From the NCBI GenBank assembly GCA_020055645.1, contig CM034546.1:102114001-102178000 (forward strand): a DNA stretch of 64,000 nucleotides. The letters are read 5' to 3'. Shown here in pieces: positions 18,823-26,624 of the stretch. The stretch comes from Tomocerus qinae. Taxonomy: Eukaryota > Arthropoda > Collembola > Entomobryomorpha > Tomoceridae. The position numbers and the translations under genes are program-made. Position 1 is the first letter of the stretch. The number at the start of each line of letters is the position of its first letter. The notes under the pieces were generated by a model. That model saw only the letters and a list, made by a program, of their open reading frames with translations. It was not told the origin of the DNA and did not search any database.

Positions 18823-20010
18823 TCTCGTTCCGATGAAAAAATGCTGTTTTTAATAAAAATTTTGGAAATTTCACACAAGCGATGTTCTTTTATTTGATGA
18901 CCGACGATGATCTATCTCCTAAGACGTAATGCAGGATTTGCAATTTTAATTCCAGTCTGTAAATTAAGATTAAAAAATCGTGAATCATGACTTCATGACT
19001 GATACTGATGACACATGAAACATGGAGCATTAACATTTTTTACACAAAATACATCATTTTGACTAATGAATTAGTAAGTAATTTAACCTTTACTGTTTTA
19101 AATGGGATGCTCCGCTTCAAGTTTGTGACTTCTTGGCATCACTTTTCGGATTCGGAACACGTACTGAATTGAAATTCTCAGAAATGAGAATCAGAATAGA
19201 ATAATGTTGAAATGCATGAATGAATGAAACCGTCAAAAGCTGTTCCAAGCCAACATTTCAAAACAAGCGGTTTAGAATATCGGGAGATTGCTGCAAGAAC
19301 AACACTCTTCGAAAGTCTCTTTCTGGTCTTACGTATCGCATTCTGTTTTGGTTAGTTTGGGAATTTCAAATGGCCATCTAACCCTAGCCGACTGCCGCGT
19401 TATAGTCTAAATAACTGTTGGCGGAATTTTCTTTCTCCATTAAAATTTCGTCATTTCGAAAAGAAGATAAAAATGATTATGACAATTTCAGAAAGGGTTG
19501 ATAAGTTGGTGTAGTATTGTACACTGCGTGTGAAATATTGTGCGATAGTCTTTCCAGAGTCACTTGGTCATTAGGTTCGAAATTTCTTACATTTACAACT
19601 TACTGTTTCTTACTGTCCATGTCCTGCTCTAGTGAGTTACTGGATGCTGGATAGCTAATTTGTTAACGATTTGTAGGATCTGACAACTATTGAGAATGGG
19701 AGAGCAGGCCTAGTAAGTTTGTGTACATATTTAAACATTAGTACAATTTTCTTAAAAAATATATGAAATAAGGACATAGGATATGTTCCTTTTTGTAATT
19801 TTATTTTAATCACTTTTACCTGTTAGTGTACGCTTACAATACTTGGAAATGGAATTTTGAAATTCGTAATGAATATGAAATATCGATTAATTACAGGGGA
19901 AGAGGAGAAGCCAAGACAAACTTTTGTCAATATATAAGTTCAAAGTTATTAAAGGAATATTTTGTTGTCATACCCTACTTCGAGACACGAAACCGAGTTA
20001 ATCAACTAAA
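18823..20010. promoter_or_regulatory. Shared upstream region of INTS15 and the USP5-SETDB1 chimera
   Basis: A 1.2-kb divergent intergenic region without a TATA box close to either start, as is usual for housekeeping genes. On the + side, a GTAAGT donor at about 19712 and an acceptor TTACAG at about 19899 could define a noncoding leader exon. Its ATG at 19695 opens only a five-codon upstream frame. Core elements are not otherwise recognisable. Confidence 0.4.
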
Positions 20011-23000
20011 ATGTCAACAACCGATGTTGACATCGAAGCTCTTCTGTCGAGTGGCCTTTCTCGAGTCAGAATTCCTCAACCTAATGATAAAGTTTACAAA
20101 GATGAATGCGTATATTCTTTTGACACTCCGGTACTTTTAAATCACATAATCATTTCAAAACTCGTGTATATCTATTCTCTACTTGTCTAAATCATTTAAT
20201 AACTTTTTGATAATTTAAAATTATAATAATAAAGGAGACTGAAACTGGACTATTCATTTGCCTGAATTCTTTTTGGGGCCTAGGAAAGGAATATGTGGAA
20301 GGATATAGTTCAAGAACCGGAAATTCTATATTTTTCCATATGCAACGAATTATTGATACAAAGGTCAGTGCTTGATTTATATGAATTTAAGCTTATATTT
20401 AAGCTGAAATTGGAAATTTTAATAATTATACTAAATATTTTTACTTTCACCCCTTTGAAGACATCTGACGCAAAAGCCAATGAAAATGAATCTATTGAGG
20501 ATCTGGAAAAGATGGACACCAATACGCTGCCAGTAGGCGTGGAAGGCGATTTTGATGCATCGACCTCGACAGAATATGCGATGACGGAACGTCGCAGTAT
20601 CTACGTTTTACCCGATTTTTATAAGATTGATTTACCTAACGACAAACTCCCAGACGAGGTTTGCGTTGCGATCACTGCCAATTTATAGTCATAGGTTCAA
20701 ACACACATAATACATGCTTTATGAAAGTTAATTTTTAATAGCTGCTGCGCTCAGTAGAAGGAATCCTCAAAGCTGAATCGGCAACAAAATTGCAAACTAT
20801 GGCTACAACGTTTGATGGGGAACCAAGAAAACTGTCAAAGTATGTTTATCCATTATATAATATGTAAAAGTTTTGCCAACTCCATCCTCATAGTTGTTAT
20901 AAAGTGATTCTGTCATCCCATTAGACACGCTGACAATTTGGTTCAGTTAGACAACGGCAAAAAGATTCGGAGGCGGAAGCAGCGTTGTGAAGTAGAAGGG
21001 TGTAATATTACGGAAAATTTATGGATAAATCTGACGGATGGATCAGTGAGATGTGATCGTCGTTATGCTGATGGATCTGGAGGGAATAATCACGCTTTGG
21101 AGCATTACCTTTCGACAAGTAATAAAATAACTAAATTGAATTAATGTTTTCAATAATGTACCCCAACGAATACATTCATGTGCTAAATTTAATACATGGG
21201 GGTATGCGACATGCGTTAGCGTACATTATTGAAAACATTAATTGTTTGAAAGTTAGATTATTTAGTACATGGAGCAAGTCATTTAAATGTATCATGTAAT
21301 ATTATGTATTATAATATCTCTTCTAATACTTTATAATTTTAATAGAGTATCCTCTTGCTGCGAAGTTAACAACTATCACTCAAGATGGAAAAGCAGATGT
21401 TTACTGCTACGATGAAGATGATTTGGTCGAAGATCCTCATTTGCTTAAACATCTTTTACATTTTATTATTTTGAAAGAACTGGATTATGAAGATGAAGTT
21501 GAAGAAATACCAAAGGAAGAAGTTGCAGCTGCAGAAATTGAGGAGATCAATTTAGACAGTGACGATGAAGATGAATCTGCAGATGCTGATAAAAGTGGTG
21601 ATATGAAAATTGACTGTGAAGATGCAGATGCTGCTGTTGGAAATATTGATATCGACGATATCAAGATGGACGAAGCAGACATAAAAATGGAAGAAATTAA
21701 TAAAGATGATGATGAAATTGATGGCGTCAAGGTAGAGAATGAAATTGCATCAGGGTCTGTTAAAAATGCTGATGAAATCAAGGTAGAAAGTGAAGACGAA
21801 CGAGACTTGAAAACCTACAGTAAAGTAATGTCACGACCATCAGACGGTAGAAAATTATGTTGCAATGAAAATTGTCCGAATCTTCACCCTGGTCCTTTAG
21901 TTCGTGCCCCAAGTCATGCTCTTTCTTTCTTTTGTTTGCAAAAGAAACAAAAAGTTCAACGGATGTGTCAAGACTGCTTGGATAGGGCAAATGAATTTAC
22001 GGACAATTGTATTGACGCCCTAAAATCAGAAATTCCGGTATTTACTTACAAAACAGAGCCTCGGACAGTTCTTACTATTTGTTTGGATGAGGAATCAGAT
22101 GAGGAATCAGAGGAAGATTTAGAGAAGACGGAGAAAGTTGAAGTGTCAGATTTGGAAAACGTTTTAGATGCCCTAACCAGCAAGTTCAAACTAACCTATC
22201 AGAGAGATGAGTGTACAAAAATTTTGGAAAAAGAAATGGATGATCTGGAAAAAGAATTTGAATGGCTGGATGCGGAGTTCACGAAAACTAGCGAACTAGT
22301 TGAAGAAACAAGGAAGGCGTATCTTGACATTGCTCTTCCTAAAATCAAACCGGTAATAACAGGCCACGTGGATATCGACGCTAACGGAGATTGCAATTTC
22401 TATAGTACTGCGGAAGAATGCGTTCCGAAAGCGAAAAGGCCTGTAGCAGTGAAGCAAACAGCACTTCCGCCAAAAAATTTCAGAACCACTCGTTCCTCAG
22501 CATCATCCAGTCAGGCGGCAGAAGACTGCGGTGATGTCCTTGAAGTTAATTTAGTAAACCGAGTCGCACCACAAATGCAGCTGTCAGCCACGCCTCCCGT
22601 TATTCCAAGAGTTATGCCAAAGATTGGAGATAAAATTTATGGAATGCACAGAAGCTCACTACATTACTGGCTCCGAGGGGAAATTGCTGAGATTCATCCT
22701 GCTCAAAATGAATTTGTCGTAAAATTTGAACCTACGAAACGAGGAAGACCGTTGCGAGATGGTAACAAGTACGATGGGGGAACCGTTCAGACTGTGAAGA
22801 CTATGAGCGCAAAGCATTTAGCATACAACCTTCCGTGTCCGTTCATCCTACCCGTAGGAACTCGTGTGATTGCCAAATTTAAAGATGAGTTTCAAACTGA
22901 ACTTGACGGTCATGGTCATTTCTACGCTGGAATAGTTGCTGAGCCACCTAAAAACACAAATTTGTATAGATATTTAGTATTTTTCGACGATGGCTACGCC

Positions 23001-24980
23001 CAATATGTATCTCAAGACGAAGTTCTCCTGGTAGCTGAATCCTCTAAAGATGTATGGCTAGATGTCCATCCCGATTCTTCAGAGTTCATTAAAAACTACG
23101 TTCAGAAATATCCAGAGCGACCCATGGTTCGATTACAAAAGGGAAGTATGGTAACTACAGAATGGAATGGGAAATGGTGGGTAGCTAGAGTAGTAGAACT
23201 GGATTGTTCCCTTGTCAAGATGCATTTTGAAGCCGATGCTCGATACGAATGGATATACAGAGGCTCAACAAGATTATCTCCATTATTTCACAAGCAGGAA
23301 AGACAGCTGACATCTGGGACGAAGAGTAATGTACGTCGCCACAATGTAAGCACAGCTAGTAGGAATACAAATCAACCAACGATAGAATACATGTACGGAG
23401 CTGAAGACTGGAGAAACAAATTGGATGGAAAGAATCCGGTTGCTAGAAAATCAACTGGATCCGGTCCTGTTCGTCCAGAGCCGCAGACTATTGTTGGAGT
23501 TTTGAAGAGGAAGGCTGGACCTATCTCCGCTGCTGAAAATAGGCTCATTGAATTTGAAGGTTCTGTCCAGGCGGTTAAGATTCCAGATCACGTCCCAAAA
23601 CCCAAAGACTACGTCAATCACTTTTGCAATGAAGATTGTGTCCTTCCGTACAACAAATATGACAGGAGTTTAAGATCGATAAATCCTCTGGCTCTCCCTA
23701 TTTATCTTGGATGGGCACGGGAAATAGCAAAAGCCCCACGTCGCACAGTTTTTTACAGAGCTCCTTGTGGCCGACGTTTAAGAGACTACGACGAGCTCTA
23801 CAGATTCCTCTCGAGAACAAATTACCAATTGGGTGTCGATTACTTCTGCTTCGACTTTGCTGTGGACTGCTTCCACGAATTCAGACCAACAAGAATTATC
23901 AAGCAACTGAAAGATCTGACATACAATAAGGAACAAGTTAAAATCACATGTGTTAACGCTTTGGACTTTGATCACCCGGAATATCTTGACTACTCCGCGG
24001 ACAGAATCCCAGGCAAAGGAGTTACTATAAATACAAGTAAAGACTTTCTTATGTGTTGTGAATGTACTGACGACTGTAGGGATAAATCAAAATGCGCCTG
24101 CTGGCAATTGACGATGTCTGGCATCTCCTTCACTAAATTGAACAATCCAGACTTTCCTATCAAAGGTTATGAAAACAGACGTCTTTATGATCACATCGTC
24201 AGTGGCATATACGAATGCAATGATAAATGCTCGTGTAAGAAGACTTGTTACAATCGAGTTGCTCAACAGCCTCTCAAATGGCATTTACAAGTTTTTAAGA
24301 CGACTTCAAAAGGTTGGGGAATCCGTCCGCTCTACGATATTCCCCAGGGGGCTTTCATTTGTATTTATGCTGGGCAGGTTCTTACAGAAGACGGAGCTAA
24401 TGAAGATGGACGCACTTTCGGAGACGAATATTTAGCAGAGTTGGATTTTATTGAAGTTAACGAGCAAGTTAAGGCTGACTACGAATCCGATGTCACAGAC
24501 ATTGAAGATGAGAAAAAGACTAGTTCCGACGAAGAGAAGTCAAGAGTTATTACAACGAGCAGTGGCAGAGTGGTCACCACCAGACGCATCACCGACGATT
24601 ATGATTCGGATGAGGAAGGTCGCAAAAGAAAACCGTCTAAATTAGCTGCCAATCCCAGTAGTTTCAAGAAAAAGAAACCAAAGCGAGTTCCTACCCGAGA
24701 GTTATTCGGAAAAGATGAGCAGTGCTATATTATGGATGCAAAAAGCAAAGGAAACATTGGCAGATACTTGAATCATTCTTGTCAACCGAATGTTTTTGTT
24801 CAAAATGTGTTCGTTGATACTCATGATTTAAGATTTCCTTGGGTAGCTTTTTTCGCATACAAACATATTCGTGCAGGGACAGAGCTCACCTGGGATTATA
24901 ATTATGATATTGGAAGTGTTCCTGACAAAAGTATGTATTGCTATTGTGGAGCTCCCGAATGCAGAGGAAGATTGTTGTAA
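20011..24980 (+). CDS. SETDB1: Chimera: USP5-type ubiquitin-binding zinc fingers fused to SETDB1/eggless H3K9 methyltransferase
   Basis: Exons 20011-20130, 20235-20363, 20461-20658 (or -20664), 20742-20839, 20925-21118 and 21346-24980, about 1457 residues. Residues 1-286 match the N-terminus of USP5/USP13. They include KDECVYSFDTP, GLFICLNSFWGLGKEYVE, GVEGDFD, YVLPDF, ENLWINLTDGSVRC, RRYADGSGGNNHALEHY and DVYCYDEDDLVEDP, so both UBP zinc-finger regions are present and the deubiquitinase catalytic domain is absent. The same exon then runs into SETDB1: an acidic region, a Cys-rich NENCPN segment (~415), a coiled coil (~515-575), Tudor repeats (~670-890; FFDDGYA, EWIYRGSTRL), an MBD (~1000-1087), pre-SET (~1140-1170; CRDKSKCACWQL) and a SET domain split by an acidic insert (GWGIRPL; NHSCQPN; ELTWDYNYD). 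Post-SET CYCGAPECRGRLL closes it. SETDB1 trimethylates H3K9 to silence transposons and genes. The catalytic motifs are intact. An alternative start for SETDB1 alone would be ATG 21603. Confidence 0.85.
21141..21241. mobile_element. Small inverted-repeat element (MITE-like) in an intron
   Basis: A perfect inverted repeat: 21139-21161 is the exact reverse complement of 21221-21243 (23 bp, beginning AATTAATGTTTTCAATAATG). Both ends carry TTAA, so the element can be read as a TTAA-flanked unit of about 100 bp with TGTTTTCAAT termini. That is the target choice of piggyBac-type transposons. It lies in the last intron of the chimera, just before the fusion exon, and codes for nothing. Confidence 0.6.
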
Positions 24981-25695: not shown

Positions 25696-26624
25696 TTAAG
25701 ATGCACACCAAGAATTTCCACCATTAGATGTAATTCTGACATAAACAGCTGAGACATATCCGTTGGAGACTTTGAACCAATTAGTATTTCCACTAACTGA
25801 ACTTCCCGTCACCCTGCTCTGGATTGTGATGCTAGCACCATTTGCGAATGAACCTACAACGCTGGCAGAAGAAGATGGACTGGATCGGATGTTCAGACCT
25901 CCATCTGCAACGACGGTACCCCGACAAGTGTTATCTGCTCCACACACTCCTCCGGTGCAGAACAAAACTCTTTCAGCCTCTCGACGACGAACGAGTCCAG
26001 GAAGTGGAACTCCTCCTGCATTGACCCATTTGGCGAATTCTCTTGAAGCTCCAGCGACATCTCCTCCGTTTAGAAGACGCACCAGAGTGGAAGATTGAAG
26101 ATTTCCACAGCCCAAGTTGAATGTGAATGAGGCAAGAGCAGAGAATTGATTTGCATTAAGATTTGCATATGTTACGGTACTGGCAACACATTTTTCATAC
26201 CGACCAGGAGCGGCTAAATCGTCGACCAAGAGATTGTTTCCGTTGGCTGTGGAAAGAGGAACCGGGTATTTACCGTTCAGTGGCACAGAGCAATCCCACA
26301 CGTGGCACGCGTGTCCATAACCGATGGTTCGGATACCCTGTAGATATAAACATGAAATTACTATGTACAATCCTTTCAGAGTCTTTCTCTTAAAATGCTT
26401 TTAATTTTCTTACAACTGGATCAGTGTAGAAATTTGGGTACCATCCTTCAAATTCTTTGATGAGAGCAAGCCCAGCTGCATTTGTTGGTCCCGTATAGCC
26501 TAAGATCAAATATATTTTTTACCACTCGGGTCAGAGATTTTATTTTAATTGGTATCAAGAATGAATACTTACGTGCTGCGTTGCTGGCAGCAATGCATAG
26601 GACTACAACTAAGAAAAGTTTCAT
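25696..26624 (-). CDS. Secreted GH24 lysozyme with C-terminal SH3b domain
   Basis: Three minus-strand exons: 26624-26573, 26499-26414 and 26337-25696, all in frame, about 259 residues. Residues 1-16 are a signal peptide (MKLFLVVVLCIAASNA). The lysozyme core follows: LALIKEFEGWYPNFYTDP with the catalytic Glu of the ExFEG motif, then RTIGYGHACHVW, LNANQFSALASFTFNLG, STLVRLLN, FAKWVNAGGVPLPGLVRRREAE. This is glycoside hydrolase family 24 (phage T4/lambda-like endolysin type), which cleaves peptidoglycan between MurNAc and GlcNAc. Residues about 185-250 are a bacterial-type SH3b domain (GLNIRSSPS, VVGSFANGASI, NWFKVSNGYVSAVYV), often a cell-wall binder. Extra cysteines (CHVWDCS, CVAS, LGCG, FCTGGVC) suggest disulfides suited to secretion. 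Likely roles are digestion of bacteria or defence. GH24 is not a usual animal lysozyme family, so horizontal acquisition is likely; introns and the signal peptide argue against contamination. Confidence 0.88.

What the first reader, a model, noticed from the sequence alone, without database searches (positions are those of the whole stretch)
20011..24980. USP5-type ubiquitin-binding domains fused in frame to SETDB1
Seen: six exons whose first 286 residues align closely by eye with the N-terminus of USP5/USP13, through both UBP zinc-finger regions. The last exon then continues without stop or splice into an acidic SETDB1 N-terminus, Tudor, MBD, pre-SET, split SET and post-SET. Known: USP5 uses this zinc finger to grip the free C-terminal Gly-Gly of ubiquitin. 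Mammalian SETDB1 activity is boosted by monoubiquitination in its SET insert. Inference: the chimera could be a H3K9 methyltransferase with a built-in ubiquitin reader. The break falls at the end of the zinc finger, the residues WINLTDG, C-x-RR and YCYDEDD are kept, and the deubiquitinase catalytic domain is missing. I know of no described gene with this architecture.
Basis: partly seen in the sequence, partly recalled or inferred. Interest (0 to 1): 0.92.

Follow-up and report, generated by a model that had tools for sequence, protein, structure and literature searches.

The report
Springtail SETDB1 wearing USP5's front end
In what looks like a springtail genome, a gene-silencing enzyme (the histone methyltransferase SETDB1) is joined in one reading frame to a copy of the ubiquitin-gripping front part of another enzyme, USP5, and the joined copy looks like a working gene rather than debris.

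Summary
Window 20011-24980 (+) encodes one six-exon, 1457-residue frame: both USP5 zinc-finger regions, an acidic linker, then a complete SETDB1. The same genome (springtail by nearest relatives) holds a full USP5 175 kb downstream, sharing the first five introns. The chimera's USP5 part, with about 0.6 kb of flank, is a DNA copy of that gene; homology stops inside exon 6. The SETDB1 part is one exon, while a second, longer-branched SETDB1 on another contig has introns: probably a retrocopy. It keeps 160 of 161 near-invariant columns. The USP5 part is constrained (pairwise dN/dS 0.24-0.30, no stops, frame-kept length changes) yet changes two to three times faster than USP5. The 11 zinc-ligand and ubiquitin-pocket residues examined are kept. 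None of 343 retrieved homologues has both modules. Reading SETDB1's own conjugated ubiquitin is unlikely, because this finger needs a free ubiquitin C-terminus. No transcript or binding data.

The parts
19383..19435 (+). upstream block shared with the flank of the full USP5 gene (co-duplicated, perhaps promoter)
   Evidence: 79% identity, E 7e-6, collinear with the parent 5' flank
20011..20130 (+). exon 1 (start codon 20011; in-frame stop at 19999-20001), USP5-derived
   Evidence: same length and phase as exon 1 of the parent
20235..20363 (+). exon 2, USP5-derived; with exon 1 holds zf-UBP_var (residues 19-79)
20461..20658 (+). exon 3, USP5-derived
   Evidence: 15 nt longer than parent exon 3
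20742..20839 (+). exon 4, USP5-derived
   Evidence: 9 nt shorter than parent exon 4
20925..21118 (+). exon 5, USP5-derived; core of zf-UBP with Zn ligands C203, C208, C225, H238 and pocket W215, R227, R228, Y229
   Evidence: same length as parent exon 5
21346..21464 (+). start of exon 6, USP5-derived: end of zf-UBP with pocket Y266, Y268, D271
   Evidence: DNA homology to parent exon 6 ends at 21464
21465..21848 (+). junction and acidic linker, in frame; no match among the retrieved homologues to its first 380 nt or so
   Evidence: Orchesella dallaii SETDB1 matches from 21819
21849..24980 (+). SETDB1 part, intronless: Tudor 22848-23018 and 23133-23282, MBD 23682-23855, pre-SET 23925-24257, split SET 24312-24902, stop at 24978-24980
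24471..24473 (+). codon of K1289, the column taken as equivalent to the ubiquitinated lysine of the SETDB1 SET insert
   Evidence: K in 121 of 121 aligned rows, one of them (P0240) plainly misaligned there; human equivalence by the paper and recall

Best explanation
This is a real, constrained chimeric gene of a springtail. Shown: the upstream flank and first five and a half exons of USP5 were copied at DNA level; the copy lies about 175 kb upstream of the intact USP5 gene and runs in one frame into an intronless, highly conserved SETDB1. Inferred: the SETDB1 half is a retrocopy and is the conserved SETDB1 of this species, while the intron-bearing copy on another contig diverged. Inferred function: transcription from a USP5-type promoter makes one protein whose N-terminal ZnF-UBP grips the free C-terminal tail of unanchored ubiquitin (or another protein with a free Gly-Gly end), tethering or regulating the H3K9 methyltransferase, much as the ZnF-UBP of HDAC6 serves a deacetylase. 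It does not read ubiquitin conjugated to SETDB1 itself.
For: Gene model and domains. Full USP5 at C1:102314188-102317998 in the same genome, first five introns shared in place and phase. Flank and exons align at DNA level; the flank up to and including the start codon scores 68 against at most 31 in 200 base shuffles. Chimera and full USP5 are sisters at 100/98 in a springtail clade. dN/dS over 279 codons: 0.205/0.729 (NG86), 0.202/0.836 (YN00), 0.196/0.647 (LWL85). Exon length differences 0, +3, +15, -9, 0. Neutral simulation at d 0.36: mean 8 stops, 1 of 400 runs without any, at least 117 changed residues, against 0 stops and 93 of 288 aligned residues differing between the copies. All 11 Zn-ligand and pocket residues examined are kept; R221 and Y261 matter most by mutation (passages of PMC3247260). 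The SETDB1 part keeps 160 of 161 near-invariant columns. Second SETDB1 on C2 with four introns inside three sampled pieces.
Against: No RNA evidence. The USP5 part departs at 12 of 53 columns that are at least 99% invariant, the full USP5 at 1 of 54, among them W-to-Q at 201 and G-to-D at 226 next to the pocket. Pocket columns are not significantly better kept than other near-invariant ones of the finger (0 of 8 against 9 of 41 changed). If the chimera branch carried only d 0.2 instead of 0.36, the residue changes alone would not reject neutrality (mean 99, minimum 73), although only 1% of runs lack a stop. Sharing of the fusion with another species was not shown: none of 5 other springtail SETDB1 proteins has it, some of which may be truncated models. 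The retrocopy reading rests on intron absence; poly-A and target-site traces were not searched for, and the C2 copy is only 60% identical.
Confidence: 0.55

Rival explanations
1. Promoter and 5'-exon capture with a passenger N-terminus: the SETDB1 copy uses the duplicated USP5 promoter and start codon, and the zinc finger is tolerated folded baggage without a ligand-binding role, as inferred for the eIF2-gamma N-terminus in insect Su(var)3-9.
For: Su(var)3-9/eIF2-gamma precedent, where the authors conclude that the fusion was non-selected and accidental (PMC1435931 sections 3 and 6). Faster change of the USP5 part (34-38 unique changes against 11-16; branch 0.41 against 0.14). Departures at otherwise invariant positions.
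Against: All 11 zinc-ligand and pocket residues examined are kept. A domain pair of 286 residues under net constraint is more than a start codon needs.
Confidence: 0.35
2. Two transcription units: SETDB1 is transcribed and translated from its own start inside exon 6 (first in-frame Met of exon 6, at 21603), and the USP5-like exons are a decaying or separate partial gene.
For: The linker found no homologue among the retrieved proteins and carries in-frame Met codons. No transcript data.
Against: Exon 6 itself starts with 119 nt of USP5 coding sequence in frame with SETDB1; no stop in any USP5-derived exon, all splice sites intact, length changes all multiples of three.
Confidence: 0.08
3. Assembly artefact that joins two unrelated loci.
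For: Not tested with reads.
Against: No N in the window and a 140-Mb contig; the join lies inside an exon and keeps the frame; the USP5 part is not the assembled USP5 gene but a paralogue 75% identical in coding DNA; the fused SETDB1 is distinct from the other SETDB1.
Confidence: 0.02

Closest known systems
SETDB1 / eggless
   Same: Tudor pair, MBD, pre-SET, bifurcated SET, post-SET, conserved ubiquitin-acceptor lysine column; 160 of 161 near-invariant columns
   Different: Carries USP5 zf-UBP_var and zf-UBP at its N-terminus; intronless; none of the 120 listed SETDB1 homologues (of 978 over threshold) has this
USP5 (isopeptidase T) N-terminus
   Same: Both UBP finger regions, intron positions, zinc ligands and ubiquitin-tail pocket
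   Different: No catalytic or UBA domains; fused to a methyltransferase; faster change
Su(var)3-9/eIF2-gamma gene fusion of insects (PMC1435931)
   Same: An H3K9 methyltransferase captured behind the 5' exons of a housekeeping gene
   Different: There the host gene is intact and both proteins arise by alternative splicing, with a shared stretch of 79-84 residues that is no closed domain; here the host 5' part is a separate duplicate, joined inside an exon, and carries whole finger domains
HDAC6
   Same: A deacetylase with a ZnF-UBP that binds free C-termini of unanchored ubiquitin (passage of PMC7659471)
   Different: Unrelated enzyme; relation of the two fingers not tested

Membership tests
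SETDB1/eggless | Tandem Tudor, MBD, pre-SET, split SET, post-SET in this order | tested here: met
   Pfam; homologues; columns
SETDB1/eggless | Groups with SETDB1 of related species | tested here: met
   Springtail clade at SH-aLRT 100 and 99/99
SETDB1/eggless | H3K9 methyltransferase activity | not testable with these tools
   Conservation of columns only
USP5/USP13 deubiquitinase | UCH catalytic domain and UBA domains | tested here: not met
   Absent from the protein and the window; the separate USP5 matches residues 2-823 of the 824 of Orchesella USP5 exon by exon
ZnF-UBP ubiquitin-tail binder | Zn ligands and W209, R221, Y261 equivalents | tested here: met
   importance of W209, R221, Y261 from passages of PMC3247260
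ZnF-UBP ubiquitin-tail binder | Measured binding to free ubiquitin | not testable with these tools
   Needs recombinant protein
Retrogene | Intronless copy of an intron-bearing gene in the same genome | tested here: met
   C2 SETDB1 has four GT-AG introns inside three sampled pieces, read by eye; the fused copy has none there
Retrogene | Direct descent from that intron-bearing copy, poly-A tract and target-site duplication | tested here: inconclusive
   60% identity to the C2 copy, whose place in the springtail clade is unresolved and whose branch is flagged long; traces not searched for

The most novel reading that the evidence does not exclude
The main SETDB1 of this species has become a chromatin enzyme gated by free protein C-termini: its USP5-type finger senses unanchored ubiquitin or another exposed Gly-Gly tail (the C-terminal GFGG of histone H4, recalled, would be a chromatin-borne candidate), so that ubiquitin status or nucleosome state directly steers H3K9 methylation.
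Probability: 0.13. Interest if true: 0.88.

Novelty: new variant of a known kind. Interest (0 to 1): 0.63.

Why it matters
It is a sequence-traceable case of exon capture that gives a heterochromatin enzyme a complete binding domain, with the donor gene still close by as a control. If the finger still binds, it links free ubiquitin or protein C-termini to H3K9 methylation, which can be tested with one recombinant domain. It also adds to the insect Su(var)3-9/eIF2-gamma case another H3K9 methyltransferase that sits behind the front of a housekeeping gene.

Tried and rejected
Nested arrangement with the rest of USP5 downstream, as in Su(var)3-9/eIF2-gamma: rejected, no USP5 catalytic sequence in the window, and the full USP5 is a separate gene. 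Retrocopied USP5 front: rejected, introns shared. Simple long-standing decay of the USP5 exons: disfavoured. Reading of SETDB1's own conjugated ubiquitin: disfavoured. Another SETDB1 nearby: none in C1:102065000-102351999 (window; L024-L026; the other stretches, whose printed tblastn left out L024). Related fusion or junction-spanning fragment in public proteins: none among the 343 listed: 120 of 352 over threshold, where only the 7988 candidates sharing most words were scored, 120 of 978, and all 103; unlisted proteins were not read, and only proteins of 0.55 to 1.75 times the query length are candidates. P0241, the best junction hit, ends as an ordinary USP5 exon. Papers: search listings showed no USP5-SETDB1 fusion; passages of PMC13389597 name no SETDB1 or ubiquitin.
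Full report
What is there. An in-frame stop begins 12 nt upstream of the start codon at 20011. Pfam and the Protein Data Bank agree on the halves: USP5-type zf-UBP_var and zf-UBP (residues 19-79, 203-279; 3ihp at E 5e-75 over 6-288) and a complete SETDB1. No USP5 catalytic sequence was found in the 64-kb window.

Where it comes from. Among USP5 proteins the best match is a pseudoscorpion model whose finger region is doubled (P0001); next come springtails (Orchesella cincta 51%, Allacma fusca 50%). The closest SETDB1 is Folsomia candida eggless (48%). So the genome is taken as a springtail; its name is not given. The genome (334 Mb, 115 contigs) places the window at C1:102114001-102178000. A search with the Orchesella USP5 gave 18 exon matches in two places: 5 in the chimera and 13 in one full USP5 at about C1:102314188-102317998, same strand. 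Exons 1-5 of the two have lengths 120, 129, 198, 98, 194 and 120, 126, 183, 107, 194, so that all differences are multiples of three and the intron phases are kept. DNA homology reaches upstream to a block at 19383-19435 (E 7e-6, collinear), and the flank from 19790 to the start codon scores 68 against a maximum of 31 in 200 base shuffles. It stops at 21464, inside exon 6, 27 nt before the parent's splice donor. This was a DNA-level partial duplication with upstream flank.

Selection on the USP5 part. Chimera and parent are 67.7% identical over 288 aligned residues. Over the 279 codons up to residue 286, dN and dS are 0.205 and 0.729 (NG86), 0.202 and 0.836 (YN00), 0.196 and 0.647 (LWL85). The chimera carries most of the change: 34-38 unique differences against 11-16 with six outgroups, chi-square 9.0-11.8, and branch lengths of 0.41 against 0.14 in a tree where the two are sisters at 100/98. 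If silent change is split evenly and protein change 75:25 (an assumption), dN/dS is about 0.36-0.46 on the chimera branch and 0.12-0.15 on the parent branch: relaxed, not absent, constraint. A simulation of neutral change at d 0.36 gave a mean of 8 stops, 1 of 400 runs without a stop, and at least 117 changed residues; at d 0.2 it gave a mean of 5 stops, 1% of runs without one, and a mean of 99 changed residues. The real pair shows no stop and 93 differing residues on both branches together. The chimera keeps 41 of 53 columns that are at least 99% invariant in 119 USP5 proteins, the parent 53 of 54. Recent loss of function cannot be excluded by these numbers.

The pocket. In human numbering the zinc ligands C199, C202, C219, H232 and the residues W209, R221, R222, Y223, Y259, Y261, D264 are all present; G220 is D; F224 is A in chimera and parent alike. 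Passages of PMC3247260 report W209, R221 and Y261 as critical and a loss of affinity from 2.3 uM to about 100 uM for R221K. Roles of Y259 and D264 and the identity of the zinc ligands are recalled. Eight of these 11 columns are near-invariant; pocket columns were not significantly better kept than other near-invariant columns of the finger (0 of 8 changed against 9 of 41; 4 of 17 changed in the N-terminal region).

The SETDB1 part. It keeps 160 of 161 columns that are at least 98% invariant in 115 SETDB1 proteins from outside the springtails. Folsomia eggless keeps 160 of 161; the other springtail copies keep 153 of 160, 153 of 161, 148 of 161 and 140 of 151. The SET-insert lysine is K1289; the column is K in 121 of 121 rows, with P0240 misaligned there. 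Ubiquitination of this site raises activity in human SETDB1 (passages of PMC5087952; PMC7354471). Human SETDB1 was not in the alignment, so the equivalence rests on the paper and recall. A whole-genome search with Folsomia eggless gave 22 matches: 2 are the chimera, 7 form a second SETDB1 at C2:56568234-56572297, and the other 13 lie elsewhere and were not studied. Two of the 7 C2 matches are listed with a TAG inside, which may be intron read-through; whether that gene is intact is open. The C2 gene has Tudor matches, the three pieces that could be read hold four introns inside them, and no USP5 match lies on C2. On 361 shared residues it is 60% identical to the chimera; its branch is 0.73, flagged as long, against 0.14 for the chimera, with unresolved order inside a 99/99 springtail clade. 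The better conserved SETDB1 of this genome is therefore the intronless, fused one. A retrocopy is the simplest cause, though intron loss is not excluded.

How it most likely works. The gene is expected to be transcribed from a USP5-type promoter (inferred) and to make SETDB1 with an N-terminal ubiquitin-tail binder (inferred). The USP5 finger recognises an unencumbered ubiquitin C-terminus (passage of PMC7659471), so that it should not hold ubiquitin already conjugated to K1289. Free ubiquitin, unanchored chains or other Gly-Gly tails are possible ligands; the title of Hard et al. 2010, seen in a reference list, says that the HDAC6 and Ubp-M fingers recognise specific C-terminal sequences. The passenger reading, as proposed for Su(var)3-9/eIF2-gamma (sections 3 and 6 of PMC1435931), is the main rival.

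Novelty. None of the 343 proteins listed by three searches of 5.8 billion sequences matches both the USP5 finger part and any SETDB1 part at E 1e-5, and none of five other springtail SETDB1 proteins carries it. Candidate lengths and listing limits apply. Listings of paper searches showed no such fusion. It is filed as a new variant of a known kind: a chimeric gene, so far seen in one genome, with a domain architecture not met in these searches.

Noticed in passing
window 21139-21243: Inverted repeat (33-nt arms, 91% complementary) in intron 5 of the chimera; pieces of it match L031 2182-2235, so it may be a small mobile element.
   Followed up: partly
window 25696-26400 (-): Phage-type lysozyme (PF00959, E 8e-32) with a bacterial SH3 domain just downstream on the other strand, perhaps horizontally acquired.
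   Followed up: no
C2:56568234-56572297 of G000 (outside the window; pieces in L047-L049): Second, intron-bearing and long-branched SETDB1 in the same genome.
   Followed up: partly
protein P0001: USP5 model of the pseudoscorpion Cordylochernes scorpioides holds its N-terminal finger region twice (residues 118-360 and 366-626); real or an annotation error.
   Followed up: no
proteins P0121, P0122, P0123, P0127: Folsomia candida and Orchesella dallaii each list two different SETDB1 proteins; SETDB1 duplicates look common in springtails.
   Followed up: partly
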